From contig NC_084933.1 in the NCBI RefSeq assembly GCF_958298935.1, positions 11,639,001-11,703,000 on the forward strand: a stretch of 64,000 nucleotides of DNA, in the 5' to 3' direction. Origin of the DNA: Phragmites australis. Lineage: Eukaryota; Streptophyta; Magnoliopsida; Poales; Poaceae. The notes below the pieces were generated by a model. The model was not told the origin of the DNA. It did not search any database and saw only the letters and a list, made by a program, of their open reading frames with translations. Position numbers and translations under genes: made by a program. The stretch's first letter is position 1; each line of letters starts with the position of its first letter. Positions 17,008 to 64,000 of the stretch are shown here, one piece after another.

Positions 17008-18585
17008 TGACGTCCTAAGAGGGGAGGGTGAATTAGGACACTTAGAACTATTTTGGCTCTAAAAACAACAAAAGATAAACTTACATCAATTTTATCTAAA
17101 TGTGCTCTAGATTTATCTAGTGTGTCTACTCTACCGATCAAAGCACTTGCAACCTATCTAAAAAGGTAAATTGTAAGTAAGTAAATGCGGAAACGTAAAT
17201 AAGGTAGAGAGAGCAAACTCGGCACAAGGATTTTTTTTCCCGTGGTATCGATGGCATGAATGTCACCCCTAGTCCATGTTGGAGCTCCACAAAGGATATG
17301 CTCCCGGTCGACACCCGGTCACGGCTCTTGAGCCACCAAGTCACAAAGACAATGCCTCCACTCGAATGAGCCACCAAGGTAAGGTCTCACCACTAGCCTC
17401 TCTTCTAGTTCCTTGCCGCCGTGATCACTTCGGAGCTTGAGCCACCAAGGCATGGGTCTTCGCGTCCCCACACAATCACCTTGCCGCCGCTCCACACCAA
17501 GTCGGAGGGTCAACAAGCTTGCCGGCGAATCACCAAGACTCCAAAGTGCTGGCGTACCAAGAGGTACACTGTTGAATTACTCGATCCACTCTCTAGGCAG
17601 CAATCACCTAGCAACACACTCTCTAGGCCTGTAAGCACTAATCACTCACTAATCTTGTGGTTAATCACCTTGGATGATCACTTTAGGCAGTTTTATGGTT
17701 TGGATGTCTTCTCAGGTGTATATGAACTTCTCTAGACTCCAACCCTCTCAAATGACTGAATGGAGGGGTATTTATAGCCTCAAACTCGCACACTAGCCGT
17801 TAACCCAATGGCTCTGAAAAGCTGTTAATATTGGATGATCCGGTGAGAACACTAGTACTAACACCGGATCATCCAGTGAGTACACTCTCACAAACTAGCC
17901 GTTGGAATCCCCACTCAAGTCTCTGTTAACACCGGATACTCTGGTGTATACATCTTCTTCATCACCAGACTATCCGGTGAGTTATCCTGAGCCATCCGAG
18001 CCTTTCCTTCTTCTCTATGTAAATTGCTCCAGTGTAAGCATCCAATGCTCATCACTTCATCACCGGACTATCCGGTGGGTTAATCTTCCTTCTTCAGCAC
18101 TTCGAACCTTCTCTGCTGAAATTACTCTGGTGTGTATCTCCTCTGGTCACCGGACCATCCGGTGGGTTCAACTTCTTCTACTCTGCTGCAAAGCTCATAG
18201 GACAATGAACAGTGCCAAACACCGGACTATCCGGTGAGTTCATCTTCATTTTCCAGCACTTGAATTCTTCTTTGCATGAATTAGTCCGGTGGACATATTT
18301 GCTTATCACCGGACCATCCGGTGAGGTCTTTAGCCCTTTGTCCCCCTTTATCAGAAATGCTCCAATGAGTTCAACACAGTGAACACCGAACCATCCGGTG
18401 AGGTAAATCTTCCTGAGACTTCTCCAATTCACTCGAACTTTATCCCGGCTTCGGTGGCTTCTTCATGTATTGCATCCATGAGACCTACTAATATATATTC
18501 TTGACAAACATGTTAGTCTCATTGACTATGTTATCATTAATCATCAAAATCACAATCATGTCCTAATAGGGTCATTTTTGCTACA
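17008..18585 (+). repeat. palindrome-array repeat, copy 2 (LTR-like, 1578 bp)
   Basis: It is collinear with the copy at 2526 from TGACGTCCTAAGAGGGGA to TTTTTGCTACA. It has the same array of CACCGGA-nnn-TCCGGTG palindromes (about 17840-18400), many of them perfect. Flanking bases (gtcag / ccatc) do not match, so again there is no target duplication. Confidence 0.7.
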
Positions 18586-25770: not shown

Positions 25771-27170
25771 TGTAGCAAACATGCCCTTGATGAGATTGTA
25801 ACGACCATCTTTAGTGCATGTATATAATTTTGGTGATTAATGACAATATAGTCGACAAGACTAACATGTTTAGCAAGTATATGCTTTAGTAGATCTCATA
25901 GATGCAATATATTAAGAAGTCACCATAACTGGAATAAATATTAATTGAATTTGAGAAGTCCCAGAAAAATTGTAGTGGTCCAGTGCACATAGATTTATAC
26001 ACACCAGAGCATTTCCAGAGGAAAAGGGTTGAAGATGCTACACGCTGAAAGGTCCGGTGTTCTGAGTTACACATGCTAGATGGTCTAGTGCTATGAAAAT
26101 GGTGCATGTCAGAGCATTTTCTGTGGAAGGAGAAAATGCACAAGACGCTGGATTGTCTGACGATGAAGATTGGCTATGCCAGAGTATTTTGCACAAAGAG
26201 AAGTTACGTAGTTTGGCTCGATCATACACGCAGGATGGTCCAACGATGAAGCTGGTGATCACACCAAAATATTCAGTGTTCAGAATGAATTTGAGTAGGG
26301 TTCTAACGGCTAGTTCGTGGAGGATGTATATAATGGATGGTCTGATGAGTATAATCTGGTTTACACCGGATCATCCGGTGTATACAGAAAAGTTGAGTCA
26401 TTGAAGCAACGGCTAGTCCGTGGGGTTGAAGCTATAAATACCCATCTACTCGGTCATTTAAGGATGCTGGAGTCCAGAGAAGCTCACACTTAAGAAAACA
26501 TCCAAGCCACCAATATTCTTAAAGTGATCATCTAAGACAATATGCACAAGATTATAGAGTGATTAGTGCTAATAGTCCCAGAGAGAGTTGTTGCTAGGTT
26601 TTGTTGCCTAGAGAGTGAATTAAGGAGTGATCCTGCATTATACAAAGATATGCCAGCATCTTAAAGTCTTGGTGACTCTCGACACCGTGACCCTTGGTGG
26701 CTCATGCTTGTTGACCCTTCGAGTTGATGTGGAGGGATGATAAGACTATTGTACGGGGACGCAGAGACCTGTGTCTTGGTGGCTCAAGCTTCGAAGTAAA
26801 GACGACGGCAAGTGACCAAAAGAGAGGTTTGGTGTGAGCCTTATCTTTGTGGCTTGGTGGCTCAAGAGCCATGACCGAAAAAGTTTTAGCGACCAGAAAC
26901 ATATCCTTAGTGGAGTTTTAATGTGGATTAGGGACGACGTTTATACCATAGATACCACGGGATAAAAATCCCTTATGTCAAGTTTGCTAATTTATCTCTC
27001 TAGAGTAGTTTGCTTAAATTAGTTATAGATTGTAAACTTTTGAACGGTAGAGTAGACAAACTAAATGAACCTATAACACATTTAAAAAAAAGTGATATAA
27101 ATTTATCTTGTGAGATTTTTAGAGCAGATTAGTTTTAAGTGTCATAATTCATCATCATCTTAGAACGTCA
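25771..27170 (-). repeat. palindrome-array repeat, copy 3, inverted and decayed (1400 bp)
   Basis: It reads TGTAGCAAACATGCCC at the left and TTAGAACGTCA at the right, the reverse complement of the ends of copies 1 and 2. The internal order is collinear in reverse. Only a few palindromes survive (for example caccggatcatccggtgta near 26365). No target duplication is visible (cccac / ccttt). Confidence 0.65.
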
Positions 27171-27371
27171 CCTTTTCCTTACACCCACCCTGAGCCTCGC
27201 CATCGCCCCCTGCCACCCCGAGCATCACCGTCGCCTAGCCCCTCCCCATCCCGAGCCGCGCCGCTGCCCAACCCTACCCTACACCGCCGTCGCCAGTCCT
27301 ACCCCTCCCCACCCCGAGTTGAGCCACCACCACCCAGCCGACGAATAAATGGGTATACCCACGAAGGACGG
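27171..27371. other. C-rich flank of element E1
   Basis: No gene is seen. It ends in gacgg, the left member of the imperfect target duplication of E1. Confidence 0.5.
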
Positions 27372-28817
27372 TGTCGGTGTATCAGGAACCAGGGGTCCCC
27401 GAATCCCGAGGCTAGGCCAGCAATCCATCACGTGACGCCATCCCGCGGTGTTTCCTTGGCGAGGTAAAAAAAAGATTAAGTCCCGGGAGAGGGCGCTCGG
27501 GGCCACAGTCGGTGGTCCTCGAGCACCCCAGTTCCCCGATGATCTGCAAAGTCTAAGTGCTGGGAAGAAAGTGCTCGGGAAGGTGTACGGTGACCCCCGA
27601 GCACCCGAGTCCCCCGACTGCCAGGAAGGCTAAGTACCGGGAGAAGTGTACCCGGGGCCGCGAGCGGTGGCCCCCTGGGCGCCCAAGTATCCCGAGGACC
27701 CACTAAAGAAAGTTCCGGGAGAGAGTGCTCGGGGCTGCGTGCGGCGGCCCCTGAGCACTCGGTCCCCCGAAGATCCGTACAAGTGTGCCGGGAGAGAGTG
27801 CTCGGGGAGGTGAATAGTGACCCCCGAGTACTCGGTTCCCTGAGGACCAAGAAGGGCATTCCTGGGAGAGAGTGATCGGGGAGGTAAATAGTACCCCCGA
27901 GCACTCGGTTCCCCGATGACTCAAAAAGCCCCTTGACAGTGGCCCCGACAGGAGTCCGCTGATGAGGTGTCGGCCAATCAGAGGTATGAGGCCGTATTTA
28001 AGAGCGCGTGTGGCCTGTCACCTCCACCTGCTCCTGCCACGCCCGGTGTCAGTTCCTGCCACATTTTTGGCAGAGGGGCGTGGGGTCATTGAATGCACGG
28101 GTCCCATCCCGTGCCATCCGGCTCGTCTCGGGATAACGTCGTAAGGGCCAAGGCGTTCCGTCTGCCGCGCTGCTGTGGCAGGAGAACAAGACAGGACGGG
28201 CACGCCGAGCCGCCCTGCGGCTGCCGGTGGGCCCTCTCCACGGCGCCCGTTGCCAGTGCATTTATGGTGACGGACGACCGGGCGTGGGATGCTTTTTCCA
28301 CTCCCGGTCACTTCGCCTAGAGGTAATGATGATGTCTTTTCCATTTATGGTTTTTCGGAACTCGTGCCCCCCTCCCGTTCGGGGCACGCTGCTGCCGGCG
28401 GATATTTAAAGCGGTCGGCGGCACGGAAGAAAGGAGAGTAGTTAATAGAAAAAAAAGACAAGCTTCGGAAGAGGAAACAATTGCTCATAAATAGAGAAGA
28501 GAAGATCACATGCCAAAAAAAAAGAGCCCCAGGCTCTAAGATAGATAAACATTCTTGTAACTAGTAACATCCTTGAGGGACTTTCTCAGGGCATTTATAG
28601 TATCCATACAGGGGTAGGGTGTTACGCCCCAGTGCAGCCCGAACCTGTCTAACCGTTGGTGCATTTACTCCGTTCCACATTAGAACATTCCACCCCACCG
28701 GCCATCGCATTCATACCCATTTATTTCTCCGGCGAACATATTCAGGATCATCCCCCCGGCCGAATCTCTAAAAAGGGGTCCCCCAGGATCCCTGCGACAG
28801 GAGTTCACCCTCCGACA
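27372..28817 (+). repeat. E1 5' LTR (1446 bp)
   Basis: It begins TGTCGGTGTATCAGG and ends CCCTCCGACA, with TGTC...GACA ends. 27480-27925 is an array of about six degenerate units that each contain 'gtgctcgggg' and its complement 'ccccgagcac', so the RNA could fold into a row of hairpins. A TATA-like TATTTAAA at 28403-28410 is the likely promoter core. The element's genomic RNA would start just downstream. Confidence 0.93.
28403..28410 (+). promoter_or_regulatory. TATA-like box of the E1 LTR
   Basis: TATTTAAA follows a GC-rich stretch and is conserved in the 3' LTR (41067-41074) and in the E2 LTR (53583-53590). Confidence 0.55.
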
Positions 28818-28881: not shown

Positions 28882-30003
28882 ATGACCGGTGGTCATCGTC
28901 TCCAGCGCTCCGGCTCTAGCTCCAGCGGGGAAATGGAGCCCCTCGCACAGGAGGCCCCAGTCGCTGCTGCGTCCCTCTCAAGGGGACCAGGGCGCTGGGC
29001 CCAGCAGGGCCGCCGCCGCCGTCGCTGGTGCACCATCCGACCCCTAGCAGGCGGCTGAAACTCCTGCTGCCAGGACCGCATCTGGACAGCGCCGGGCGCC
29101 TCTCCAGCGTAGACTCGCCTTCGGCGAGGCCAGTCCCGGGAGCGCGCTGCTTGCGGCGCACGCTCTCCTCAGGCATCCGCCAGTCCAGGTGGCAGGAGAA
29201 ACCCCGGAGGGCCGCTGGCTCCAGGAAGTCGCCGCCCTGGTCGGCACTGCCCGCCGCCAGGTGCTGGCCGAGAGTTCCCGCGCCACCACCCAGCGTGTCG
29301 CCGCTAGGACCGGCCCATCGTCGGGTGGTGGTCATGCTAGCCGGGGGGCCTCCAGGCGGAGCGCCGCCCCCTTGGTCACTTCCGAAACCCAGGACCTCCG
29401 CTTACACCTCAACGAGCAGAGGGGCATTGAAGACGCGCGCGTCACTCTCGAGCGCCAGCGGGAGACCCGGCAGGAGGCTGAAGCTGAGGACCAGGCCTCC
29501 TCTTTGCCAGCCCACGATCGTTGGGGCTCCTCGACTCGCCGGCGTTCACCGCCCAAGGGCGCTGCCCACGCCGCAGGGTATGGCACCGGGTGCCGTGCCT
29601 TCGCCAGTGAGCTCCGCCGGGTCAAATGGCCCACCAAGTTCCACCCCGAGCTGCCAGAGAAGTACGACAGGTCTATCGACCCTGTCGAGTTCCTCTAGAT
29701 ATACACCATCGGTGTCCAGGCTGGCTGGTGGTAGCGAAAAGGTGATGGCTAACTACTTTCATGTTGCCTTGAGGGGCTCTGCCCGCTCTTGGCTTATGAA
29801 CTTACCCCCAGGATCTATCAGCTATTGGGATGATCTTTGCCACCAGTTCGTGGCTAATTTTCAGGGCACATTCACACGCCCCGGCCTGGAGTGCGATCTC
29901 CATGCCGTCAAGCAGCAAGAGGGGGAGACGCTGCGGCGCTTTATTCAGTGCTTCAGCCAGGTCTGCAACACCATCCCGCGGATAACCCCCACGCTGTCAT
30001 TGT
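28882..30003 (+). pseudogene. E1 gag (capsid domain), broken
   Basis: The ATG at 28882 matches the E2 start at 54151 after a near-identical leader. The retrotransposon gag domain is visible at about 29610-29995 (KWPTKFHPELPEKYD, MANYFHVALRGSARSWLMN, QQEGETLRRFIQ). Compared with E2 there is a 34-bp deletion near 28973 at a TCCC repeat. There is also a stop at 29696-29698 (CAG to TAG), one extra base near 29730 and one missing base near 29988. Gag would form the virus-like particle and bind the RNA. Confidence 0.85.
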
Positions 30004-31360
30004 AGCTTTCCGGCAGGGCGTCCGCGATGAGCGGATGCTCGAGAAGCTAGGCACACACGAGGTTGAGACCACCGCGGAACTTTTTGCGCTGGCCGACAAG
30101 TGCGCTAAGACGGCGGAAGCTCGGGCTTGGTACGTTCCGCGCCCTGAGCACCCCGCCACCGATCAACCAGGTCCTTCCCGCTCTGAAAGGCGGGAAAAGA
30201 AAAAGAGAAGGAGGCGCGAGGCTATCCCCGTCGAGCCAGCCCAGGGCCCCGCCCGTGGGCCGGCCCTGGAGCCCGACCATCGGCAAGCACGCCGGGCGGC
30301 CACCGACAGACGGCCTGCGCCCGCGAGAGCCCCGGTCCAAGCCCCTCCTAGTGCTCTGGCTCCTGCAAGTGCTCCAGCTCCCGCCAGGGCTTCCGCTTCG
30401 GCAAGGGCCCCGCAGGAGCCGGGGAAGTGGTGCCCGATCCACCAGACCAGATGGCATGACCTCACGGAGTGCCGCACGGTCAAGGGCCTCGTCGAGCAGC
30501 GCCAAAGGGACCGCGACGAGCTCCGTGGGGGTGGCGACGATGAAGCCGCCCCCTACAACACAGAACTAGACTTCCAGGAGCCTGAGCACACCGTCGCCTT
30601 CATCGATGGAGGCGCGTACACGCCCTCCTCCCACCGCAGTGTCAAAACCATGCGACGTGAGGTGTGCTCGGTGACCCCGAGTGAAGAGGCCGCAAGGCCT
30701 ATGAAGTGGTCAAACGCACTGATCACGTTCAGCTTGGCCGACCACCCCGCCAGTACTGCAGGCGTGGGGCGACTACCCCTGGTAGTGTCCCCTACCATCT
30801 GCAACGTGAAGGTCAGCAGGGTGCTGATCGACAGGGGTGCAGGCCTTAACCTCCTCTCCAAGGAGGCTTTCGAGAAGCTGCAGGTGCCCTCCAGGCGCCT
30901 AAAGCCGTCTCTCCCGTTTTACGGGGTGACGCCCGTGCACTCCCTGTCCCTCGGGCAGGTCGAGTTGCCCGTGACATTCGGGAGCTGGGACAACTTCCGG
31001 ACGGAGAACGTCATCTTCGACGTCGTGGAGCTCCCCCTCCCCTACAACGCCATCCTCGGGCGCCCGGCGCTCGCTCGGTTCATGGTGGTTACGCATTACG
31101 CGTACCTCATGGTCAAGATGCCTGGCCCAGCGGGCCCCATCTCCGTGTCCGCCGAGACCAGCAGCGCCGTCTCCTGCGCTGAGCAGTTATACTCAGCCTT
31201 GGTCTCAGCCTGAGTCGTGGTCGAAAGTTATCCAGGGGGCCCGGGACCCTCTTCATCCAAACCCCGACTCGCTCCCGACGCCTCCGTTCCTATGAAAGAG
31301 GTCGTGGTGGGCGAAGACGCCTCCCAGGTCGTCCGAATCGGCGGTGCATTGGGCGGCAAA
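30003..31360 (+). pseudogene. E1 gag C-terminus with zinc motif, and aspartic protease
   Basis: This frame has the end of Gag (ALADKCAKTAEARAW), a basic and Pro/Ala-rich linker, and a zinc-binding CPIHQTRWHDLTEC at about 30432-30473. The retropepsin part has active site VLIDRGAGLNLL at 30821. The expected D-S/T/G-G has Arg in the second place here, while E2 has DGG, so the protease is probably dead. The frame meets a TGA at 31211-31213 (CGA in E2) and a TAG at 31361-31363 that E2 shares. Confidence 0.85.
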
Positions 31361-31363
31361 TAG

Positions 31364-32131
31364 GAAAGCGCGCTCGTCGCCTTCCTCCGGGCTAACGTCG
31401 ACGTGTTTGCATGACAGCCATCCGATATGCCCGGGATCCCTAGGGAGGTGATCGAGCACCACCTAGCTGTGCGCCCGGACGCACGCCTGGTGAAGCAGAA
31501 GGTCCGGTGGCAGGCGTCCGAGCTCCAGGAGTTCATCCGGGAGCAAGTCAGCAAGCTCCTTGACGCCGGATTTATCCAAGAGGTCCTCCACCCCGAGTGG
31601 CTGGCAAACCCAGTTATCGTTCCGAAGGCCAATGGCAAGCTCCGCATGTGCGTGGACTACACCGATCTAAACAAGGCTTGCCCCAAAGATCCTTTTCCTT
31701 TGCCCCGCATAGATCAAATTGTGGATGCGACCGCGGGATGTGATCTTCTGTGTTTTTTAGATGCAAACTCTAGTTATCACCAGATTCGCATGGCCATAGA
31801 GGATGAAGAAAAAACTGGTTTTACCACTCCGGTGGGGACTTATTGCTATGTGTCGATGCCGTTTGGTTTGCGCAATGCTAGGTCTTCTTTCCAGCGTGCT
31901 ATCCGCATCACCCTTGATTCGCAGGTTGGCCGCAACGTCGAGGCCTACATCGACGATCTCGTGGTCAAATCCCGAGACCGCGCCACCCTGCTCGAAGATC
32001 TTGCCGAGACTTTCAATAGTCTCCGCACTACCCGCCTGAAGCTCAACCCCGAGAAATGCGTCTTTGGGGTACCTGCGGGCAAGCTCCTTGGTTTCTTGGT
32101 TTCCAGCCGAGGGATCGAGGCCAATCCTTAG
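31364..32131 (+). pseudogene. E1 reverse transcriptase
   Basis: The frame continues the protease frame after the TAG at 31361. Visible blocks are GKLRMCVDYTDLNKACPKD, FLDANSSYHQIRMA, MPFGLRNARSSFQRA and the catalytic YIDDLVVKS at 31946-31972. A TGA interrupts it near 31412 and a TAG ends it at 32129. RT copies the RNA into DNA in the cytoplasmic particle. Confidence 0.92.
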
Positions 32132-33490
32132 AAGATCCGGGCCATCGAGCAGATGCGACCCCCAGCTCGACTCAAGGAGGTTCAGCGTCTCGCCGGCTGC
32201 ATGGCGGCCCTCGGGCGCTTCATCTCCAAACTTGGGGAGCGAGGACTCCCGCTCTTCAAGCTTCTGAAGAAGACCGGTCATTTCGACTGGACGCCGGAGG
32301 CCGAGCAGGCCTTCCACGATCTGAAGAAGTATCTCACCTCACCACCTGTGCTGGTGACCCCGTCCGAAGGTGAGCCACTACTGCTTTACGTGTCGTCCAC
32401 TCCTCAGGTCGTGAGCATGGTGCTGGTGGTGGAGCGCGATGAGTGCACGGGGTCAGGTGCTGGGTCCCAGCTCCCGGCCGCCCCGGAGCACTCCCCCGTC
32501 CTCGTGGCTCCCCCCGAGCACTTGGCTCCTCCCGACTAGGGAGTAGAGCCTGAGCACCCGGTCAGCCCCGACCACGTCTCCGTGCCCGGGGGCTGTAGCA
32601 GGCCCTCGGGTGAAGCCGTAGCCCGGGCCTGCCTGGTACAGTGACCGGTGTACTTCGTCAGTGAAGTCCTCCGGGAGGCCAAGACAAGGTACCCCCAGGC
32701 TCAGAAAATGCTCTACGCCGTGCTCATCGCTTCCTGAAAGCTGCGCCACTACTTCCAAGCACACAAGGTCTCGGTGGTTACCACGTACCCACTAGGACCC
32801 ATCCTCCGGAACCGAGAAGGCACCGGGCGCGTCGTCAAGTGGGCGGTGGAGCTGGCGGAGTTCGACCTGCACTTTGTCAGCCGCCAGGCGATCAAAAGCC
32901 AGGCGCTCTCTGACTTCGTGGCAGAATGGACGCCTGTCCTTGAGGTCGTTCCAGAAGAAATCTCCACATATCCCGGGCACGATGCGCCTAGGTACTGGAT
33001 TATGCATTTCGACGGTTCCCTCGCGCTGAAAGGCGTAGGGGGCGGAGTGGTTCTCACCTCCCCAAAGGGTGAAGAACTCCGGTATGTCATGCAGCTACAG
33101 TTCCGCACATCCAACAACATGGCGGAATATGAGGGCCTCATTGCCTGCCTCCGAGCCACAGTGGGCCTCGGGATTCGTCGCCTCCTGGTCAAAGGAGAAT
33201 CTCAGCTGGTGGTCAACCAGGTATCGAAAGAGTACCAGTGCACGAATCCTCAAATGGCAGGGTACGTGGCGGCAGTAAGGAAGCTGGAAAAGCGCTTCGA
33301 CGGCCTGGAGCTACGGTACATCCCTCACCATGACAACGCTCTGGCCGACGACCTTTCCCACCTGGCCTCCTCCCGTGTGCGCGTCCCTGCCGGAGTCTTT
33401 GAAGAAAGACTCACACGGCCTTCCATCCTGCCTGCCGAACAGGACGAAGGGGAACCTCAAGCTAAATTCAGGGGACCCCGGCGGCGCCCT
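32132..33490 (+). pseudogene. E1 RNase H, low-complexity linker and second (archaeal-type) RNase H
   Basis: The first RNase H begins about 32150 (EVQRLAGCMAALGRFISK, FDWTPEAEQAFHDLKKYL) and resumes with [16 protein letters not shown] and SQALSDFVAEW. Between them (about 32445-32640) is a Pro/Glu/His-rich linker that includes APEHSPVLVAPPEHLAPPD. The second RNase H starts at about 32996 (WIMHFDGSLALKG), with AEYEGL and ALADDLSHLAS. Its third acidic site is Glu (GESQLVVNQV), where E2 has Asp. Stops at 32537, 32641 and 32736 correspond to sense codons in E2. Confidence 0.88.
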
Positions 33491-34801
33491 CAGTGGGAAG
33501 CCCCGACAGGGTGCCACCGTCCGGCGAGTGCGCTGCGCTTGCTGATTGTTCTCAAGATTCCTCGTGGATGGACGAGATCCGATGGTACTTGAAGGAAAAG
33601 TTCCTCCCCGGGGATGAAGCTTCTGTCGAAAGAGTTGCTCGGCAGTACAAACACTATGCCATAGTAGACGGGGATCTCTACCGGCGTAGCACAGGCGGCA
33701 TCCTTCTGAAATGCATCACCTGGGCAGAAGGCGGCGAGCTTCTCGCTGAGGTCCACGAGGGCGAGTGTGGTGGCCATGCATCATTTCGCACATTGGTCGG
33801 GAAGGCCTTCCGGTAAGGTTTCTACTGGCCTACAACCCTCTAGGATGCTTCCGAGCTGGTTCGGCACTGCAGGGCATGCCAATTCCACGCAAAGCAGATT
33901 CACCATCCAGCTCAGGCTCTTCAAACCATCCCCCTGTCATGGCCTTTCGCGGTCTGGGGGCTGGACATTCTGGGTCCATTCCCCCGAGCGATCGGGGGCT
34001 ATGAGTACCTCTACGTCGCCATCGACAAATTCACCAAGTAGCCGGAGGCGGTTCTAGTCGTCAAGGTGACCAAGAACACGGCGCTCCAGTTTATCCACGG
34101 TATCACCAGTCGCTTTGGTGTCCCGAACCGGATCATCACCGACAACGGCACTCAGTTCACAAGTGCCCTGTTCGGGGACTACTACGAAGACCTCGGCATC
34201 AAGCTCTGCTTCGCCTCCGTCACTCATCCTCGGAGCAATGGGCAGGTCGAGCGTGCCAACACGGAGATACTGAAGAGGCTCAAAACCCGGACCTACAACG
34301 TGCTCGCAAAGCACGGGAAAGGGTGGATCGACGAGCTACCTGCCGTGCTATGGGCCAATCGGACTACGCCAAGTCGCGCTACAGGGGAGACTCCTTTCTT
34401 CCTTGTGTACGGCGCTGAGACGGTCCTTCCCTCCAAACTCACTTTAGGCTCCCCTCGGGTGCATGCCTACTCTGAAGGCGAGCAGGAGCAGCAAAGGCGC
34501 GACGACGTCGACTATTTGGAAGAGCGCCGGCAGCGTGCCACCGTCAGAGCAGCGCGCTACCAGCAAAAGCCTGCGGCGCTACCATCAGCGTCACGTCCGG
34601 GCCCGGTCTCTCGAGGTGGGGGATCTAGTTCTCCGACGCGACCAATCGCGCGAAGGAAGGAATAAGCTGTCCCCTATGTGGGAAGACCCCTTTACCATGA
34701 TCGGTGTCCCGCGAGAAGGATCCTTCCGGTTGGCCGCAGAAGATGGGCAACCGCTTCCCAACCCGTGGAACATCGAGCACCTGTGCAAGTTCTTCCCGTA
34801 G
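33491..34801 (+). pseudogene. E1 integrase
   Basis: The N-terminal zinc-binding part is visible (HEGECGGH, then CRACQFHAK). The catalytic core has D in GLDILGPF (33964), D in ITDNGTQFTS (34138) and E in NGQVERANTEI (34241). The C-terminal part (LEVGDLVLRR, LSPMWEDPFTM) ends in TAG at 34799-34801. Stops at 33815, 33841 and 34041 and a shift near 34570 break it. Integrase would join element DNA to the chromosome. Confidence 0.92.
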
Positions 34802-36487
34802 ATGGCCATGTCTGCAGGCTCTGGTCAACCAGGCCGGGGGCTTCCCCCCGCCCAAGTTGACCGGGGGCTACCACTATCTGGGTAAGTCACCCAACCTTGT
34901 AAAAAAAAATTGTCAATACAATATGTATATCAATGTGCAATACTTATGTCAAATTTTATTTTTCTAGATTCCATATGTTAAGTTGTTTGGTGAGATGCTC
35001 GATTGTGCGAGAAAATGCGCTCTCTCTTTTTCCCCGTTGATAAAAGAATCCCGATCGGTATGCGCGCGGGCAGTTGCCGCTAACTTACGTCTGTTGTGGT
35101 AGGCTGTGGTGTTCGGTGTCGTGACAGTCTCCCGAGCACTACCGAGCCCCTGGGGTCCTCGGGTAATCCTATCGCTTGAGCCGCTCGAGTAGTTTGGAGC
35201 CTAGGCCCCAGGGGCGGGCTGTCGGTACTCGGTCTGGTCTGTCATACCCAGGCGCCACCGAACTATAGAACCTCTGGGTTATACCCCTGCCTGCTCTTGT
35301 CCGCCGGTCTGGGCATTCGAGAGGTCTCGGGTCGAAAATGAGAGCAGTCTATAATGAGTACCGCACTAACAGAGCGCACCAAGCAAAGATTTTCTCTATT
35401 TTTCTCGAGTCACAGATCAACAATCGAAAGTAAGAACAGCTCGACCGCGAGGGCCTCATTGCCCAGGTCGCTGCTCGGCCTTGGGAGTCCTCGGGCGGTC
35501 CTACTGCTCGGGCATGAGTGGTCGGGATCGCCTGATCCCGGGCTCCCCATGCGCCCCCTGTAGCTCGGGCGCCCCAGCCACGGGAACCAAGCTCCCGGGC
35601 ACCCTGAGCTCGGAGCGCATGCCTCTCCTGGATCGGTTGGCCGAAAAGCTGACAGCTGTCCGGTGAGTGGTTAAATTCATACGATTTTACATTCAGCAAT
35701 ATATTGTTCCCGAGTTGTCCTCGGGGGCTCTCGTACTCTAATCTGTTCGGTGAGATGGTCTCCTCACGCGCAAAACCCTGCCACGTGTCCACTTTTTCCT
35801 GGAATGACAGAACGGTCAGTAGAAAGGTGTACCGTACGTACGGTAATGTCTGACCGAAGTCTTTCATGGTGGTCGTGGTGTTTGGTCCGCTTAAAGGGGC
35901 CTGAGCACTACCGAGTCCCTGGGGTTCTCGGGTAATCCTATCGCTCGAGCCGCTTTAGTAGTCCGGAGCCTAGGGCCTAGGGGCGGGCTGTCGGTGCTCG
36001 GTCTGGTCCGTCCTAAGCCCGGGCACCACCAAACCATGGAGACTCTTGGTCACATTCCCGCCCGCACGTGTCTCCAGTCTACTTGCCGAGTGGTCGCGTA
36101 GTGGGAAAGTGTTCACTGGTCATGGCGTGCTCCGTGCTGGATCGATCCATCTCCCGAGCAAGGAAGTTTGTGTCTTTGTCTTTTGACTTAGCCGTTGCGG
36201 ACTCGCGAGGGCTCGGGGGCTGAACACGCCGAGAAGGCCTCACTGCTCGGGTGATGAGTGGTCGGGGCGACTTCATTCTCGGGGAAGGAAAGGTCAGGCT
36301 CGGTCCGACTGAGTACTCCTCGGGGCATCAAGTGAAAATAGCAGAAACTTCATCAAGCACTCAGAAGAACACTGGAGTTGTGACCCCAAAGAAAGGCTTC
36401 CATTATATTCACAAAAGGACAGCTATTCTGAGGGATCACTCCCATATTTACATCAAGTCAAAGAAAAAGAAAAAAAACTACAAAAGC
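34802..36487 (+). other. E1 spacer between pol and the antisense gene
   Basis: This is noncoding with a duplicated block. 'gagcactaccgag...gggcgggctgtcgg' occurs at about 35134-35345 and again at about 35903-36110, some 770 bp apart. The same pair is present in E2. It may hold 3' processing sites for both the pol RNA and the convergent antisense RNA. Confidence 0.6.
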
Positions 36488-39400
36488 CTAGTCGGAGTCG
36501 GAGCCCTCGCCGCTGCTCCCCGAGTCTGGAGTCGGTGGTGCCTCTCGTCTGAAGCAGGCCGCCACCGCTGCGGCGACGCCCCGGACTGCCTCCCGGGCGG
36601 CCTCTTCCTCGGCTTCGATCACCTCTTCCCGAGCTGGTTCCAGCGGAAAGTTCGGGTCCCGGCTTCGGTAGCAGGCCAGGACATGCTCGGCCACTGCCTG
36701 GGCCAAGCCACGCCCTTCCCGGGCGGCGAGCTCCTGGACGGCCTGGGGGAGCGCCTCGAGACGCTGGCTGATTCTCTGAAAGCCAAGGGCAACCTGGCCG
36801 AGGCCCGTCCCCTTCGCTTCCACGTGGACTCGCCCGAGCCCAGCCACCCCCACGGACCTCTGCGCTTGCCGGAGGATGTCTTCCATCATCCGCTTCACGC
36901 TGGCCCGTTCGGCCGTGGCGGCCTCGAGCTCCTCCGTCGCGCTCTGCAGCCGCTCCTCGAGGCCCTGTCCCCCGGCCGCCCCAGCAGAGGCAGCGCCGGG
37001 CGCCTAGGCTTCAGCCAGCTTCACCCGCTCTGCAAGGACGGAGAGAGCTTGCTCGCGGGCGGTCAACTCTGACTCCCACTTGGCGGCCCGCTCCTCCCGA
37101 GCGACGGCGGCCACCGCTGCCACGGCAGCCTCTGTCTCCCGACGGGTCAGCTGATCCTCCCAGGCTTCCAAATCAGCCACCGTGATGTTGACGTCGATCT
37201 CTCGGATCACGACGTCCTCCTCCCGGCGCTGGAGCTCCTCCTCCTAGTGCTGGAGCTCCTCCTCCCGGTGGTGGAGTTCGGCGTGGATCCGGTCAGCCTC
37301 GCCTTTCTGGCGGGCCAATTCAGCCTGGGAGGCCTCCGCTGCCCTCTCGCGGGCCAGGACTGCCTCCTCCCACGCCTGCGCCTGCCTCTCCCAGGCGAGT
37401 GCCTCGGCAGCCTGTTGTCGCGATGCCTCGGCCAGGCGGCGGCGTCTTCCCGCTCCCGCATGGCCTCCGTGTGAGTGCCCTCTAGGGCCTTCCGCTCCTC
37501 CTCCAGAGCGCGCCGCTCGCTCTCGTTGGTGGCGCGCGCCGCGGCAAGGCGGGCCTCAAAAATGCGCCAGCCCATGACAAGCCGCTACCTCTCCGCAGCA
37601 AGGGCGGCGCGCTTCGCCTCAAGCTGCGTCATCTCCCCCACCACGGCCGCCTCCAGCCGCCCGATCACCTCCCGGGCGCTCCCTAGTACGACTGGAAGGT
37701 GGTCGGCGGGCTGGCTGGGCGACGGCTGGGTGCTGGGTCCCCTGCGAGCCTCCTCCGAGGGGCTCGGGGTCCCCGAAAATTGCCATGCAGGCACCGCCCA
37801 TGACGAGGTCGTCCGCCTCACGCTCGACGCGCTCGGGGTGGACTCAGCCGGCGCCGGTCGCTCGGGCGTGGCCGCTGCTGTCGGCTCAGGGCAGGGCGGC
37901 GCCTGCGGCTCTGTCTCTCCCGGCGCGCTCGGCGGCCCCAGCTCCACTGACGTGCTCGGCTCGGGGGCTGGAGCCGACCTCGGCGCCTTCGGCCGTCCCT
38001 GGTCCTCGGCGGCGCCCGTAGGCGGTCTGCAAAAGAAGAACGTGGTTAGTCTTCGAACTCAGTCTGGGCAAGACATGCTCAGGAAAAAGGGAAGGGAAGC
38101 TTACACAGGTGTGGGTCTTCGGTATTGCCACCTCGATGTCGGGATCCTGTACCCCGGGCCTGATGGCGTTGGCCCGGAGTCCTCCCTCCTCCTCTTCCGC
38201 GGGGGGCTCTGCGGGGCCGCCGCGCGGTCTCCGGGCTCCAGACCAGGCCCAAGCAGATCAAGGTCTGGTTCCAGAACCGCAGATGCCGCCCCCGCCGACG
38301 GCCCCACGCTGGGCGACTGATTGCCCCGACCTCCCTCCTCGCCTGGCGACAGCGACGGCGGGGACGCCGGCATAGGAACGAAAGTCTGGGGGCGCTTCCC
38401 CTGTCCCCCGGCGTTGTCCCCGCCCCGCTGCTAGCGGCACCTCCTTCTCCAGCCTGGTGGCTGCTGCCCGCAGCAGCCCCACCGCTGGCCTGCGGCCCGC
38501 CACCTGCGGTGCCCGAGCCACCGGTCTGCGCCAGATTGCCTACGGCCTCCTCACTGGCCGCCTCGTCCACCAAGGGAATCTGGATAGTCCCGGGGTTCCG
38601 GCGCCCCGTCCGGTCGACCAGCCCCTGGGCGTCAAACTCCGGCAGCGTCGCTTGCAGCGCCACCCGGTTTGGATCGGCACAGAGCGCTAGGTCCTCCCGG
38701 GGGAGCTCCGCCCGGCTCAGGTCGTCCACCCCAATCACCACCTGGAGCAGGCCCCTCAGCGCTGGCCTGCCCAGGTCCCACTCCACGCCGATCTGGGTCC
38801 GGGTGATGTCCTGGGGGCCGGTGTAAAACCAGCAGGGCTGGGCCTGTTCCCGCAGTGGCGCCAGGTGGCGGCGCAGGAAGTTCACCACCACCATCACCGA
38901 AGTAAGCCCGGCCTGGCGCAGGAAGTCGATGCGCTCCAGGACCGGCGCAATCCGCTCGTCCGCTTGCAGCGGAACCTCCCAGGTCACCTTCCGGGGTTCC
39001 GCCGCCATCTCTGGCAGGGTCAGACGGTCGTGGGGGCTGACGTCGACGTATAACCAGTCACGCCGCCAGTCCTCCCACTTGCTCCGCAGCACCTGGGGAA
39101 TGTATTGCTCCCCCAGGCCGTCCCGCAGCCGGAAGTTGTAGCAACCGGTGACGTCCACGGTGGAGAGGCCCCTCTTCTTCCCGACCGACCGCAGCACAAA
39201 GAAGTGCCAGAAGAGCGTCACCGACGGTGGCACCCCCACGAACATCTCGCAGAAGTGAGCGAAGATCGCCAGGATGACGACAGAGTTGGGGCTGAGGTGC
39301 ACCAACTGGATCTCGAACGTGTCGAGGATATGGAGAAAGAATGTCGAGAATGGCGGCACCAGCCTGGCCGCCACGAAGGAAGTAAAGAGAACGATGCGCC

Positions 39401-39575
39401 CCCGCCGGTTCGTCACCGGCGGGAAGCTCACCGGTGCCACCACCGAGGCCCCTCGCTGGCCCTCGGGAACCATCAGCTTCCGAACCCTGTCCGCCGCCTC
39501 CTCGTTCACCAGCCGGGACTCCGGCAGAATGCTGTCGGTTGCCTGGTCGCAGCGGCTTCCTCCTGCTCTCGACAT
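36488..39575 (-). CDS. E1 antisense gene, PF04195-like protein with coiled coil, one intron, decayed
   Basis: The gene reads opposite to gag-pol. Exon 1 (39575-38105) has a conserved segment at residues ~55-115 (VLFTSFVAARLVPPFSTFF, IQLVHLSPNSVVILAIFAH, MFVGVPPSVTLFWHFF). This fits the plant domain named putative gypsy type transposon (PF04195, from memory). WEDWRRDWLYVDV and a Gly/Ala-rich stretch follow. After a frame change near 38400 it reads PRKRRREDSG and reaches a GTAAGC donor. A 68-nt intron (38104-38037, acceptor TTTTGCAG) joins in frame to exon 2. Exon 2 holds PPTGAAEDQG, a long coiled coil and a C-terminal VHVEAKGTGLGQVALGF...GSDSD. Frame breaks in exon 2 show decay. A TATA box lies 146 nt upstream of the ATG. 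Function unknown. Confidence 0.75.
38037..38104 (-). other. 68-nt intron in the E1 antisense gene
   Basis: On the minus strand it runs GTAAGCTTCC...CTTCTTTTGCAG. The donor, the pyrimidine-rich end and the acceptor are standard. Skipping it joins RRPTP and PPTGAA through one split codon. Confidence 0.65.
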
Positions 39576-39720
39576 CTCGTCAGGGTGGGGGATGATCTGG
39601 ACGGTGGGGGAAGACGAGCGCTCTGATCGCCTAAGGAAAGTCTAGGGCTCAGGAGCGCAAGGAAGATGAAAGCTTGATCGCAAGATGGCGTAAAGAGGGG
39701 GGCGGTTCGCTCCCCTCCTC

Positions 39721-39728
39721 CTTTTATA
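39721..39728 (-). promoter_or_regulatory. TATA box of the E1 antisense gene
   Basis: The minus strand reads GGGGTATAAAAGGAGG here, 146 nt upstream of the ATG at 39575, inside the region between pol and the 3' LTR. Confidence 0.65.
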
Positions 39729-40106: not shown

Positions 40107-41480
40107 TGTCGGTGTATCAGGAACCCGGGGTCCCCGAATCCCGAGGCCAGGCCAGCAATCCGCCACGTGGCGCCATCCCGCGGAGTTTCCTCCGCGAGGT
40201 AAAAAAAGATTAAGTCCCGGGAGAGGGCGCTCAGGGCCACAGTCGGTGGTCCCCGAGCACCCCAGTTCCCCGATGATCTGCGAAGTCTAAGTGCCAGAAA
40301 GAAAGTGCTCGGGAAGGTGTACGGTGACCCTCGAGCACCCGAGTCCCCCGACGGTCAGGAAGGCTAAGTACCGGGAGAAGTGTACCCGGGGCCGCGAGTG
40401 GTGGCCCCCCGGGCGCCCAAGTATCCCGAGGACCCACTAAAGTAAGTGCCGGGAGAGAGTGCTCGGGGAGGTGAACAGTGACCCCCGAGTACTCGGTTCC
40501 CCGAGGACCAAGAAGGGCATTCTCGGGAGAGAGTGCTCGGGGAGGTGAACAGTACCCCCCGAGCACTCGGTTCCCCGATGACTCAAAAAGCCCCTTGACA
40601 GTGGCCCAGACAGGGGTCCGCTGATGAGGTGTCGGCCAGTCAGAGGTCTGAGGCCGCATTTAAGAGCGTGTGTGGCCTGTCACCTCCACCTGCTCCCGCC
40701 ACGTCCGGTGTCAGTTCCTACCACATTTTTGGCAGAGGGGCGTGGGGTCATTGAATGCACGGGTTCCATCTCGTGCCATCCGGCCCGTCTCGGGATAACG
40801 TCGAAAGGGTCAAGGCGTTCCGTCTGCCGCGCTGCTGTGGCAGGAGAACAAGATAGGGCGGGCACACTGAGCAGCTCTGCGGCTGCCCGGTGGGCCCTCT
40901 CTACGGCGCCCGTTGCCAGTGCATTTATGGTGACAGACGACCGAGCGTGGGATGCTTTTTCCACCCCCGGTCACTTCACCCAGAGGTAATGATGACGCCT
41001 TTTCCATTTATGGTGTCTCGGAACTCGTGCACCCCCTCCCGTTCGGGGCACGCTGCTGCCGGCGGATATTTAAAGTGGCCGGCGGCATAGAAGAAAGGAG
41101 AGTAGTGAAAAGAAAAAAAGACAAACTTCGGAAAAGGAAACAATTGCTCATAAACAGAGAAGAGAAGATCACAGGTTAAAAAAAAAGAGCCCAAGGCTCT
41201 AAGATAGATAAACATTTTTGTAACCAGCAACATCCTTGAGGGACTTTCTCAGGGTATTTATAGTATCCATACAGAAGTAGGGTGTTACGCTCCCATGCGG
41301 CCCGAACCTATCTAACCGCTGGTGCATTTACTCCGTTTCACATTAGATCATTCCACCCCCACCGACCATCGCATTTATACCCATTTATTTCTCCGGCGAA
41401 CATATTCAGGATCATCCCCCGGCCGAATATCTAAAAAAGGGTCCCCCAGGATCCCTGCAACAGGAGTTCACCCTCTGACA
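40107..41480 (+). repeat. E1 3' LTR (1374 bp)
   Basis: It is collinear with the 5' LTR from TGTCGGTGTATCAGG to CCCTCTGACA. It is 72 bp shorter because one unit of the hairpin array, present in the 5' LTR at about 27720-27795 and in E2, is missing near 40452. TATTTAAA is at 41067-41074. Confidence 0.93.
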
Positions 41481-44806: not shown

Positions 44807-46938
44807 CTAGTTTTTCTTCGAAATTTTAGAAGGACAGTACAAGTGCCGCCCTGCTTCCGCAGCCTCCTTGATTTCTTGAAGTTGATTAGCTATGTCCTCT
44901 AAAAGTTGCAACTGTAATGACTGCCTCCTTTCATTTGCCGCAAGCCTTATCTTGTCTTGTGCATCTTTAATGGCATGCAGATTTCCCCCCAGGAGATCTG
45001 CAGCAGCACGAGTCTGCAACTTTTCTGCTTGTATTGTTGCATCTGAGAAGCTTCGACCAATCACGCCCTTAACTGCATATGAACAGCTGAATTTTAGTAT
45101 CAGTTTCAATTGATTCTGTTGCAAAAATAGTTTAGAGAATGTGCCAATCACAGTAGAGATTGAGCATATCATACTGGTGAAGCAGCAAATACAGCCAATG
45201 GATAGGCATACGGAAAATGCTCCTATGGTGTGGAGTACTGTGGAGTGTGGACACAAGCAGAAGTGTTCAGAACTATGAGTAAATAAAGGCTGGAAGGATG
45301 TAGGCATACCATAAATCTCAACTTGAAAAGCTATAGAAGTAGTTTTATCAAACAAGAATCAGTAAGACCAACACAATCAGCTCTAACGTTTGAGATGTGA
45401 ACCCATGAAAAAAAGATGGCACGTACAAAAAAAGGAACTCACTTAAAAATTGAAATGATAGAAGATAGTGTGGTCTTCCTAAGCAATACAAGGACCATAT
45501 GCTCCAACGAGGTTCCGATCAATGAACGCAACATTAAGCAAAACAAGCATCAAACATGCACACTAGGAATGGTTTTAATGAATCAACTATAGCTCAAAAT
45601 TAAGATCACACCACACGCACGGGATATCAAGACCTCCCAAGAATGGAACTGTAGGCCTACATTTATTACACTATAAAAATACTTTGGCACATTATACTAT
45701 ATAGAAATCATCAATTGAGCATCATTTTTCCACAAAATCGTACCTTCTGTGGAGAAGAATATGTCATCAACCACATGCACGTCGTAGATATTTGCATCAT
45801 TCTCACTTTCTGAATGATCATGACTAATCTTGTCTACACCTCCACACTCTACCTCCTGAAATTCATCAGCAGTCTGTTGCTCTGTAACTTCTGTACCAGC
45901 TGCAGCATCAACATGAAAATCACCACCTTGATTTAGACTCCGGGCATATAGGGGGAGGATTTCCACCGTCTCTGTTCCATCATCTTCGCTGCTATCCAGC
46001 TTCAGTTTTGATCCAACCACAGGAACTTCACCGGGTGTCTGAACAGCTATCATATCGTCGTTTCCCCCTGTCCCTCGGGCATGATCTACAGGAACAGGTG
46101 GCACCAGTTCCTCACGCAAGAACGGCATCTTGAAGCTAAACACAGAATCATTCCCCAATTGCACGATCTTGTCATTACCACCGTTCCTATTAACGGATTT
46201 TGACGAGCTCGGCTCTCCCTCAGACATGATGATACTGTGCGGCGTCACCATCTCCTCCTCATCCTCGTCGTCCTCTGTGCCGAGACCAAGCAGCCGGCGG
46301 TACGCGTCCACCTCCTTCCGCAGCGCGCGGGCCTCCCGCTCCCTTAGGAGCACGATGTCCCTGAGCTCCTCCACCTCGTCCTCGTAGAAGGCGCAGCGCT
46401 CGTCGGCGGTGCGGCGCTGCTGGCGCGCCTCGATCTCGAGCGCGGACTTCTCCTTCTGCAGGCGCAGGATCATGGCCATGGCCTCCTCGGTCGCGGACGC
46501 CGACGCGCTGCGCTCCTTCTCGAGCTCCCGCTGCAGCTCCGCGCACTGCGCCTCCCGCTCCCGCTCCTCCCTCCCCCGCCACAGATTCCCATCGACGGCC
46601 TCCTCCTCACCTTCGTCTTCCTCCTCCACATCCTCCTCCTGCCGGCCCTCATCGCCGACGGCGACGAAGGGGAAGCGGGAGCGGAGGGAGGCGAGGAGGG
46701 AGTCGATGGCGCGGGCGGGGTAGCGCGCGAGGAACGCGAGGAGGCAGGGGAGGTGCGGGCGCGCGCAGGTGCAAGGCAGCGGGAGGCCGACTAGGGCGAG
46801 GAGGCGCGCGGCGGCGGTGGCGAAGGCGGCGAGGCAGAGGCAGGCCCAGGCGAACGCGAGGTCGACGAACGCGCCGGCGAGGGAGCGGACCGTCCAGCGC
46901 GCGCGCACGGCCGCCGCGCCCGGACAGCGCGCCATCAT
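44807..46938 (-). CDS. GTD-binding (DUF593) domain protein, myosin-binding type, two exons, 486 aa
   Basis: Exon 1 is 46938-45744, exon 2 is 45072-44807, with a GTACGA donor, an ATGCAG acceptor and phases that match (398 codons plus one base, then 88 codons). The N-terminus has a hydrophobic segment at residues ~20-50 (DLAFAWACLCLAAFATAAA), then an acidic stretch. The GTD-binding coiled coil follows at ~125-215 (EEAMAMILRLQKEKSALEIE, ERCAFYEDEVEELRDIV). The C-terminal IYDVHVVDD motif is found in this family. Exon 2 adds a second amphipathic helix region (LQLQLLEDIANQLQEIKEAA). Family members (maize Floury1, Arabidopsis MyoB) sit in endomembranes and bind myosin XI or zein. Start at the first of two ATGs. 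No lesions seen; it is the best intact gene in the window. Confidence 0.9.
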
Positions 46939-61760: not shown

Positions 61761-63276
61761 CTAATCTAAGTCGGAGCCCTCAGAAGATAGCGGGGCCTCC
61801 TCGTCGCTGCTCCCCGGGTCCGGGATCGGCGGTGCCTCTCGCGTGAAGCAGGCCGCCACCTCGGTGGCGGCACCCCGAACTGCCTCCCGGGCGGCCTCCT
61901 CCTCAGCCTCGACCACCCCTTCCAGAGCTGGTTCCAGCGGGAAGTTCGGGTCCCGGCTTCGGTAGCAGGCCAGGACATGCTCGGCCACCGCTTGGGCCAA
62001 GCATCGCCCTTCCCGGGCGGCTAGCTCCTGGACGGCCTGGGGGAGCGCCTTGAGGCGCTGGCTGATATCCTTGAAGCCAAGAGCGATGCGGCCGATGCCC
62101 GTCCCCTTCGCCTCCACATGGACTCGCTCGAGCCCGGCCACCCTCACGGACCTCCGTGCTTGCCGAAGGATGTCTTCCATCATCAGCTACACGTTGGCCT
62201 GTTCGGTCTTAGCGGCCTCGAGCTCCTCCGTCATGCTCCGCAGCCGCTCCTCGAGGCTCAGTCCACCGGCTGCGCCGGCCAAGGCGGCGCCGGGCGCTTG
62301 GGCTTCGACTTGCTTCACCCGCTTTGCAAGGGCAGAGAGGGCCTGATCGCGGGTGGTCAGCTCTGACTCCCACTTGGCGGCCCGCTCCTCCCGAGCAGCT
62401 GAGGCCACCAACGCCTCGGCAGCCTCTGTCTCCCGGCGGATCAGCAGCTCCTCCCGGGCGTCCAGGTTCATCGCCGTAATGCTGACGTTGGTCTCGCGGA
62501 TCGCGACGTCCTCCTCCCAGCGCCGGAGCTACTCCTCCTGCCATTGGAGTTCGTCGCGGCTCTGCTCAACCTCGCCTTTCTGGCGGGCCAAGTCCGCCTA
62601 GGAGGCCTCCACAGTCCTCTCAAGGGCCAGGACCGCCTCCTCTCGTGCCTGCACCTGCCACTCCGTGGCAAGTGCCTCGGCAGCCTGCTGCCGCGATGCC
62701 TTGGCCAGGCCGACGGCTTCCTCCTGCTCCTGCATGGCCTCCGTGCGAATCTCTTCTAAGGCCTCTCGCTCCGCCTCTAGCGCGCGCCGCTCGCTCTCGT
62801 TGGCGGCGCGCGCCGCGGCGACACGGGCCTCAAAAAGGCGCCTGCCCTCGGCAAGCCGCTCCCTCTCCACGGCAAGGGCGACGCGGCTCACCTCAAGCTG
62901 CGTCCTCTCCTCCGCCACGGCCGCCTTCAGCCGCCCGATCACCTCCCGGGCGCTCCCTAGCACGTTTGGGAGGGGTTCAGCAGGCCAGCTGGGCGACGGC
63001 TGGGCGCTGGGTCCCCTGCGAGCCCCCTCCGAGGGGCTCGGGGTCCCCGAAAACTGCCATGCAGGCACCGCCCACGACGAGGTCATCCGCCCCACACTCG
63101 ACGCGCTCGGGGCGGGCTCAGCCGGTGCCGGTTGCTCGGGAGCGGCCGCCGCCATCGGCTAAGGGTAGGGCGACGCCTGTGGCTCTGTCTCGGCCGACGC
63201 ACTCGGCCGCTCTGGCTCCACCGGTGCGCTCGGCTCGGGGGCTGGAGCCGGCCTCGGCGTCTCCGGCCGTCCTTGG
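61761..63276 (-). pseudogene. E2 antisense gene, 3' exon only, cut by E4
   Basis: It corresponds to exon 2 of the E1 antisense gene. 63155-62598 encodes a coiled coil (GSAREVIGRLKAAVAEERTQ, ARAANESERRALEAEREAL) and 62183-61761 encodes the C-terminal HVEAKGTGIGRIALGFKDIS...DLD. Frame breaks lie near 62560 and 62190. The E4 LTR starts about 25 bp before the place that would be the intron acceptor, so the conserved exon 1 lies outside the window. Confidence 0.72.
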
Positions 63277-64000
63277 TGATGAGGACATCACTCTTTCGGA
63301 TACACACACACCGAATATTCCCCCAACACTAGGTCCATTGACACGAGCTCGTGCACGTCAACTAAATCATGAGGTGAGCTTGTTCCTTAGTGTTCCTTTA
63401 TACTTTGATGAGGATGGGATGCTACTAAATAATTGTTATGTATTGCTACTTAGGAACACGGGAGAAGAACAGCATGGGCGTCCAAGCCAAGGTGGAGGCC
63501 CAATCCAGTTCGAGTTCGTTTCGGAGTCCAGGACCAGTCCGCACTAAAATCATTGCCCAGGATGTATACGGACTCCGTTTTTGACGTTCTACACATGGTT
63601 GGAAAGCTAAGGAGATAAGATTTCCAACGGTACTGGTCCCATGTCCAAATTCTTTCTGAGTCAACGGGAATCGTTGAAACAAGTGGATATCCAGAATCTG
63701 TCAGGGTGCTGCGCCACCATCTTTTGGGCCGTTGGGCCGTGTAACGTGTTGGAGTCCATTAGGGACGCGTCCAGGGGTCCTTGGCCGACCCTAGTCTTTT
63801 ATATACAGTAGCCGCTGCCCTAATTAGGGTTGGGTTTTGCTTAGATATTGATCTGCACACAGTTGTGAGATTTTCGCTCTTGTTCCGGACTGACTAGGCC
63901 GCCGCAGGTGTTTGTGGAACCCCGACTTCGAGTGCTTGAATTCAATTCGCAATATTTCAGATTGCATCTTCTATGTTCTTGCTTGTGTTCTCGGTACGCT
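63277..64000 (+). repeat. E4: 5' part of an LTR inserted in E2, running off the right edge
   Basis: It starts TGATGAGGACATCAC exactly where similarity to E1 ends. The first 270 bp stay open and read DEDITLSDTHTP, GPLTRARARQLNHEVS and LLLRNTGEEQHG, the known C-terminal end of grass gypsy polyproteins, so pol overlaps the LTR in this family. 63780-63830 has the 'ttttatatacagtagcc' TATA region and the text then parallels the E3 LTR at lower identity. The right end is not in the window. The flank before it is cttgg. Confidence 0.65.

What the first reader, a model, noticed from the sequence alone, without database searches (positions are those of the whole stretch)
36488..39728. A spliced antisense gene with its own TATA box inside a Tat-lineage retrotransposon
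Opposite to gag-pol, E1 carries TATAAAAG at 39721-39728, an ATG at 39575, an exon with a conserved PF04195-like segment, a 68-nt intron with normal borders that joins two frames in phase, and a coiled-coil second exon. The second exon is also present in E2. Extra ORFs between pol and the 3' LTR are known in the Tat lineage, but an independently promoted, intron-bearing gene suggests a protein made from nuclear RNA. Since an intron on this strand is not removed from the sense genomic RNA, it survives retrotransposition. Possible roles (regulation of the element, RNA export, packaging, host interaction) are inference.
Basis: partly seen in the sequence, partly recalled or inferred. Interest (0 to 1): 0.75.

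Follow-up and report, generated by a model that had tools for sequence, protein, structure and literature searches.

The report
Broken antisense gene of plant retrotransposon
A jumping element in a grass genome carries, on its back strand, a decayed copy of an extra gene of a kind already known from this group of elements; a short intron inside it looks real and shared with relatives, but whether the gene is read at all could not be tested.

Summary
There is an antisense gene here, but of a known kind. E1 (LTRs 27372-28817 and 40107-41480) is a Tat-clade Ty3-gypsy element, probably Retand. Exon 1 has a clear PF04195/Transposase_28 domain (E 4.9e-22). One survey reports this antisense domain in 97% of recent Retand clusters; an own promoter is reported for maize Grande. 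The intron is 78 nt (38104-38027), not 68. And E1's gene is not intact: a frameshift near 38.4 kb, three in-frame stops and a second frame change in exon 2; the last ~105 residues of the 498-aa ORF are out of frame. The intron is well supported: 8 of 25 Phragmites gene models match the spliced junction without a gap, and four more relatives' proteins end at it or five codons before it. None of 120 rice relatives has the exon-end motif, so the intron may not be shared with rice. The region upstream of the start resembles one relative; the TATA match alone is not significant. E1-E2 comparison gives exon 2 dN/dS 0.52, no better than noncoding sequence. No RNA evidence was available. The texts I could read mention no intron in this antisense gene.

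The parts
27372..28817 (+). E1 5' LTR (TG...CA); primer-binding-like stretch TGGCGCGCCAGGTAGGGG from 28820
   Evidence: 93.4% identical to the 3' LTR over 1370 aligned sites, K2P 0.070; flanks GACGG / GATGG. The primer-binding reading is by position
29028..34665 (+). E1 gag-pol remnants: gag (29028-30005), protease-like (29891-31213, below cutoff), RT (31427-32131), RVT_3 RNase H-like (32774-33592), integrase core (34066-34665, below cutoff)
   Evidence: Pfam
36400..36488 (-). 3' UTR-like stretch with TTTGTA and AATATAATGG, shared with E2
   Evidence: poly(A) role inferred, motif meaning recalled
36489..38026 (-). Exon 2: proline-rich stretch, coiled-coil-like region, conserved C-terminal part; broken by stops at 37587, 37246, 37006 and a frame change near 37440
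38027..38104 (-). Intron, 78 nt, GTAAGC...CTAAC...TTCTTCTTTTGCAG, 47% GC against 68% and 72% in the exons
38105..39575 (-). Exon 1, PF04195/Transposase_28 at residues 62-129; frame change near 38.4 kb
38182..38199 (-). Basic cluster RKRRRE, candidate nuclear localisation signal, in the frame that enters exon 2; downstream of the frame change
   Evidence: similar cluster in 14 of the 18 relatives (of 23 examined) in which the exon end could be placed; the signal reading is recalled knowledge
39721..39728 (-). TATA box TATAAAAG, 153 nt upstream of the ATG
40107..41480 (+). E1 3' LTR, preceded by CCAATGGGCCCGGGGGCTGC at the polypurine-tract position
61763..63277 (-). E2 exon 2 remnant with four in-frame TAG stops; exon 1 and intron not found in the window

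Best explanation
It is a decayed copy of the antisense accessory gene (Transposase_28/TRP28 gene) of a grass Tat-clade, probably Retand, Ty3-gypsy retrotransposon. In intact relatives the likely course is: host RNA polymerase II reads the integrated DNA from a TATA promoter between the 3' LTR and exon 1; a 78-nt intron is spliced out; the mRNA ends shortly after exon 2; the product has an N-terminal Transposase_28 region, a basic cluster that may send it to the nucleus, a coiled coil and a conserved C-terminal part. It then most likely acts in the nucleus as an element-encoded regulator. Shown here: protein homology, that both exons belong to one gene, intron position and phase against relatives, broken state of E1 and E2. 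Inferred: transcription, splicing, nuclear location, regulatory role. E1 itself cannot make the full protein.
For: PF04195 E 4.9e-22. Exon 1 residues 1-391 align to P0001 with 248 of 379 identical and two gap runs; the first 330 columns are gap-free with 228 identical. The last open piece of E2 exon 2 matches 106 of the 155 fetched proteins at E up to 0.01, 105 of them among the 120 rice-search hits P0019-P0138, best E 2e-14 (E-values for a set size of 1e6 letters); most of those carry PF04195 at the other end, so both exons belong to one gene. The 78-nt splice aligns gap-free across the junction to 8 of 25 Phragmites models, and 4 more join directly after the RW motif, up to 8 codons earlier; in all 12 the spliced peptide scores above the intron-kept and the 68-nt versions. 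P0017 and P0148 end six residues after W.Y, which is E1's junction codon; P0001 and P0002 end five residues before it. Intron-like pattern in 4 of 2000 simulations. Upstream region similar to P0155, score 101 against at most 60 in 500 shuffles. RT, RVT_3, integrase order fits Ogre/Retand.
Against: No RNA data; the Phragmites models are automatic predictions and may lean on each other. Of the other 13 Phragmites models, the intron-kept peptide scores higher in 9, equal in 3, lower in 1 (it was also longer, 97 residues against 60, and those models mostly cover one exon). E1/E2 exon 2 dN/dS 0.52 is no lower than the best of six frames in noncoding sequence (0.50) and far above RT (0.16); exon 2 differs more than the noncoding gap (222 of 1493 sites against 118 of 1098) although third positions differ most (93 of 498 against 59 of 498 and 70 of 497). 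The TATA match alone is not significant. None of the 120 rice proteins has the exon-end motif, so the intron may be younger than the split from rice-type elements. The Retand call rests on domain order and the antisense gene, not on an RT tree.
Confidence: 0.85

Rival explanations
1. The antisense transcript matters, not the protein: antisense RNA from the internal promoter pairs with genomic RNA and feeds silencing or dampens transposition, and the ORF is a relic.
For: E1 and E2 are both broken; exon 2 shows weak constraint between them; PMC7264820 (parts 1-2 of 3 read) names the dsRNA route as possible, alone or beside a protein role.
Against: Exon 1 is conserved as protein over 330 gap-free residues against P0001; an intron that restores a reading frame is hard to explain for a noncoding RNA.
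Confidence: 0.15
2. The 78-nt stretch is not an intron but an insertion or decay in this copy that happens to look like one.
For: No RNA evidence; thresholds for the simulation were set after seeing the sequence; no DNA of a relative was available at this place.
Against: GT..AG borders, branch-like CTAAC, pyrimidine tract, GC drop to 47%, gap-free joining to 8 of 25 Phragmites models, and proteins of four relatives ending at or within five codons of the same point.
Confidence: 0.08
3. A host gene captured by one element, or a nested unrelated transposon.
For: Antisense orientation and a promoter of its own are gene-like.
Against: Exon 2 lies at the same place in E2; relatives in rice are widely named as retrotransposon proteins; PMC11963269 reports no similarity to TRP28 outside transposable elements.
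Confidence: 0.03

Closest known systems
TRP28 (Transposase_28, PF04195) antisense ORF of Retand-lineage elements (Vicient 2025, PMC11963269; parts 1-3 of 5 read)
   Same: Position between pol and 3' LTR, antisense orientation, PF04195, compatible domain order
   Different: That survey counts ORFs and in the parts read describes no intron; its elements were chosen as recent, E1 and E2 are broken
Grande gene23 of maize (Gomez-Orte 2013, not read; as told in PMC7264820)
   Same: Antisense accessory gene with own promoter; nuclear product would fit the basic cluster
   Different: No sequence comparison done; whether gene23 has an intron is not known to me
Rice antisense-type proteins named 'Transposase (putative) gypsy type domain-containing protein' or retrotransposon protein
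   Same: PF04195 at the N-terminus and a homologous C-terminal part
   Different: 36-41% identical to E1's first 330 residues; exon-end motif in 0 of 120. That they are RIRE2's ORF is recalled from the literature, not tested

Membership tests
Tat clade of Ty3/gypsy (Neumann 2019, PMC6317226, passages read) | additional aRH (RNase H) domain | tested here: met
   RVT_3 E 8.3e-17 in E1 and 3.8e-16 in E2; that RVT_3 stands for aRH is recalled
Retand/Ogre branches | aRH between RH and integrase | tested here: inconclusive
   RVT_3 lies between RT (31427-32131) and integrase (34066-34665), as expected; the RH domain itself was not located
Retand | long pol-3'LTR region with antisense TRP28 ORF (97% of clusters in PMC11963269; pfam04195 in 23% of Retand elements in PMC6317226) | tested here: met
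   PF04195 above cutoff, antisense, between the integrase ORF (ends 34665) and the 3' LTR (40107)
Retand | reverse transcriptase groups with Retand in a tree | not tested
   no reference RT sequences were gathered
Retand TRP28 gene | intact coding sequence, as in active copies | tested here: not met
   E1 and E2 carry stops, E1 also frame changes: the locus is a dead copy of the gene
Grande gene23-like gene with own promoter | transcription from the internal promoter | not testable with these tools
   no RNA data; TATA and one relative's similarity only

The most novel reading that the evidence does not exclude
Some grass Retand elements keep a phase-2 intron in their antisense gene under selection. 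Because the intron is on the strand that the packaged RNA does not splice, each new copy inherits it, and the nuclear accessory protein can only come from spliced mRNA made off integrated DNA, never from genomic RNA. The intron would thus be a working part of the element's regulation rather than a relic.
Probability: 0.22. Interest if true: 0.5.

Novelty: new member of a known kind. Interest (0 to 1): 0.3.

Why it matters
Antisense accessory genes are a common feature of one large branch of plant retrotransposons, yet their role is unknown (PMC11963269, PMC7264820). A conserved intron gives a clean handle: spliced reads would prove that the antisense mRNA is real and not read-through, and annotation that looks for single ORFs will cut such genes in two. 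In this window the copy is dead, so the value is in pointing to relatives.

Tried and rejected
The 68-nt intron was rejected. An intact E1 gene was rejected. dN/dS between E1 and E2 was tried as proof of selection on exon 2 and did not give it: 0.52 in the coding frame, 0.53 in the mirrored frame on the other strand, 0.50 as the lowest of six frames in noncoding sequence, 0.16 in RT. Two structure predictions were poor (mean pLDDT 46.9 and 54.6); a PDB fold search with the second gave nothing at E 0.001 or better (7 matches at E up to 10), and a profile search of PDB sequences gave two rows, E 0.11 and 0.84, taken as chance. One scan of viral contigs found no relative. In one search my loose rule flagged 16 of 25 models as crossing; I kept 8 gap-free and 4 joined after the RW motif and dropped P0013, P0014, P0015 and P0152, which lack the exon-end motif. 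In one search two exon 2 pieces of E2 were cut in the wrong frame; they were replaced. The three protein searches scored only the candidates sharing most words, so relatives may be missing.

Literature: nine of ten searches answered. Read: PMC7264820 parts 1-2 of 3 (part 3 not opened), PMC11963269 parts 1-3 of 5; passages only of PMC6317226, PMC12786077, PMC3352295, PMC5599236; other papers only as search listings. Not read: Gomez-Orte 2013, Steinbauerova 2011, Kejnovsky 2006, Ohtsubo 1999. That no intron is described rests on these searches and readings only; an intron in Grande gene23 could be in a paper I could not see.

Full report
What is there. E1 is an LTR retrotransposon with LTRs at 27372-28817 and 40107-41480 (93.4% identical over 1370 aligned sites, K2P 0.070; about 2.7 million years at the recalled grass rate of 1.3e-8). 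Its flanks GACGG and GATGG look like a target duplication with one change. Gag and RT are above Pfam cutoffs, integrase and protease below, and an RVT_3 domain lies between RT and integrase. By the passages of Neumann 2019 that I read (PMC6317226), the extra RNase H marks the Tat clade, and its place between RH and integrase marks Ogre and Retand; I did not locate RH itself or build an RT tree. The source is a grass by its relatives; the species was not identified.

The antisense gene. On the minus strand the ORF 39575-38079 (498 aa) has PF04195 at E 4.9e-22. Its first 330 columns align with P0001 without a gap, 228 identical. A search of 5.8 billion proteins gave 19 hits: 9 Phragmites gene models, 9 unnamed ORFs (8 of them from JGI) and one rice protein. 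A search with that rice protein gave 181 hits, of which the 120 listed are Oryza proteins of 741-1112 aa, most with PF04195. The last open piece of E2's exon 2 matches 106 of the 155 fetched proteins at E up to 0.01, 105 of them from that rice set, best E 2e-14. So exon 1 and exon 2 are two ends of one protein, without any need to trust the intron.

The intron. GTAAGC at 38104 and TTTTGCAG ending at 38027 give 78 nt, 47% GC against 68% and 72% in exons 1 and 2, with CTAAC about 20 nt before the acceptor. Removing 78 nt gives ...RIPTSRWQYRRPTPV|PPTGAAEDQGRPKAPRSAPAPEPS. Eight of 25 Phragmites models run through this junction with no gap at it, and four more join directly after the RW motif; in all 12 the spliced peptide scores higher than the intron-kept or 68-nt version. 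In the other 13, the intron-kept peptide scores higher in 9, equal in 3 and lower in 1; it was longer, and those models mostly cover one side only. Two Phragmites models (P0017, P0148) end exactly at E1's junction codon, and P0001 and P0002 end five residues before it, as expected if the relatives are interrupted there too. A pattern with these features arose in 4 of 2000 simulated sequences (thresholds set afterwards). The Phragmites models are automatic, and I cannot say whether RNA supported them. None of the 120 rice proteins has the exon-end motif, so the intron may be limited to part of the grass elements.

The copy is dead. Against relatives, E1's frame changes near 38.4 kb, so the last ~105 residues of the 498-aa ORF are out of frame, and the candidate nuclear signal (RKRRRE; a similar cluster in 14 of the 18 relatives in which the exon end could be placed, of 23 examined) is lost to a protein starting at 39575. 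Exon 2 has stops at 37587, 37246 and 37006 and a frame change near 37440. E2 has four TAG stops in its frame and matches E1 only up to 38003, so intron and exon 1 are not found in the window.

Promoter and end. TATAAAAGG occurs once in the window against 0.43 expected, so the match alone says little. More telling, the part of P0155 upstream of its likely start resembles E1's region upstream of the ATG, including the TATA stretch, at score 101 against at most 60 in 500 shuffles. That is one relative. Downstream of exon 2, E1 and E2 share a TTTGTA / AATATAATGG stretch like plant 3' ends (motif meaning recalled).

Selection. Between E1 and E2, exon 2 has dN/dS 0.52 in its frame, but noncoding sequence reaches 0.50 in its best of six frames, and RT has 0.16. 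Exon 2 also differs more (222 of 1493 sites) than the noncoding gap (118 of 1098), though third codon positions differ most (93 of 498 against 59 of 498 and 70 of 497). This pair therefore gives no proof that exon 2 was under selection; the case for coding rests on homology to other species. A heptad periodicity test supports a coiled coil (1 of 300 shuffles reaches the value for the first E2 piece, 12 of 300 for the second).

What is known. Vicient 2025 (PMC11963269) finds antisense TRP28 ORFs in 97% of recent Retand clusters and suggests DNA binding and regulation; Neumann 2019 gives pfam04195 in 23% of Retand elements. Vicient and Casacuberta 2020 (PMC7264820) report that Grande gene23 is transcribed from its own promoter and that its protein is nuclear, and ask for antisense and spliced transcripts to be looked for. 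[quoted passage not shown] I found no mention of an intron in the antisense gene in these texts or in the listings of nine searches; the key Grande paper was not available.

Verdict. A member of a known kind in a decayed state, with one useful addition: a probably real intron at 38104-38027, shared with Phragmites relatives.

Noticed in passing
window 63278-64000: The E2 antisense gene stops matching E1 at 63277; what follows does not match E1 and has another TATATAAAAG on the minus strand, so E2 may be cut by a nested insertion or deletion.
   Followed up: no
window 45697-46938 (-): 413-aa ORF with a coiled-coil-like middle part that looks by eye like a host gene rather than transposon sequence; a 182-aa ORF lies next to it at 44807-45355.
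   Followed up: no
window 2519-3620, 17001-18094, 26393-27172: A dispersed repeat in direct (82% identical) and inverted (73-78%) copies, separate from E1 and E2.
   Followed up: no
window 61763-63275 (-): The four in-frame stops of E2 exon 2 are all TAG, at least one of them where E1 has CAG, as cytosine methylation decay would give.
   Followed up: partly
P0005, P0142, P0145, P0150: Phragmites models that join directly after the RW motif, up to 8 codons upstream of E1's junction: alternative splicing or prediction noise.
   Followed up: no
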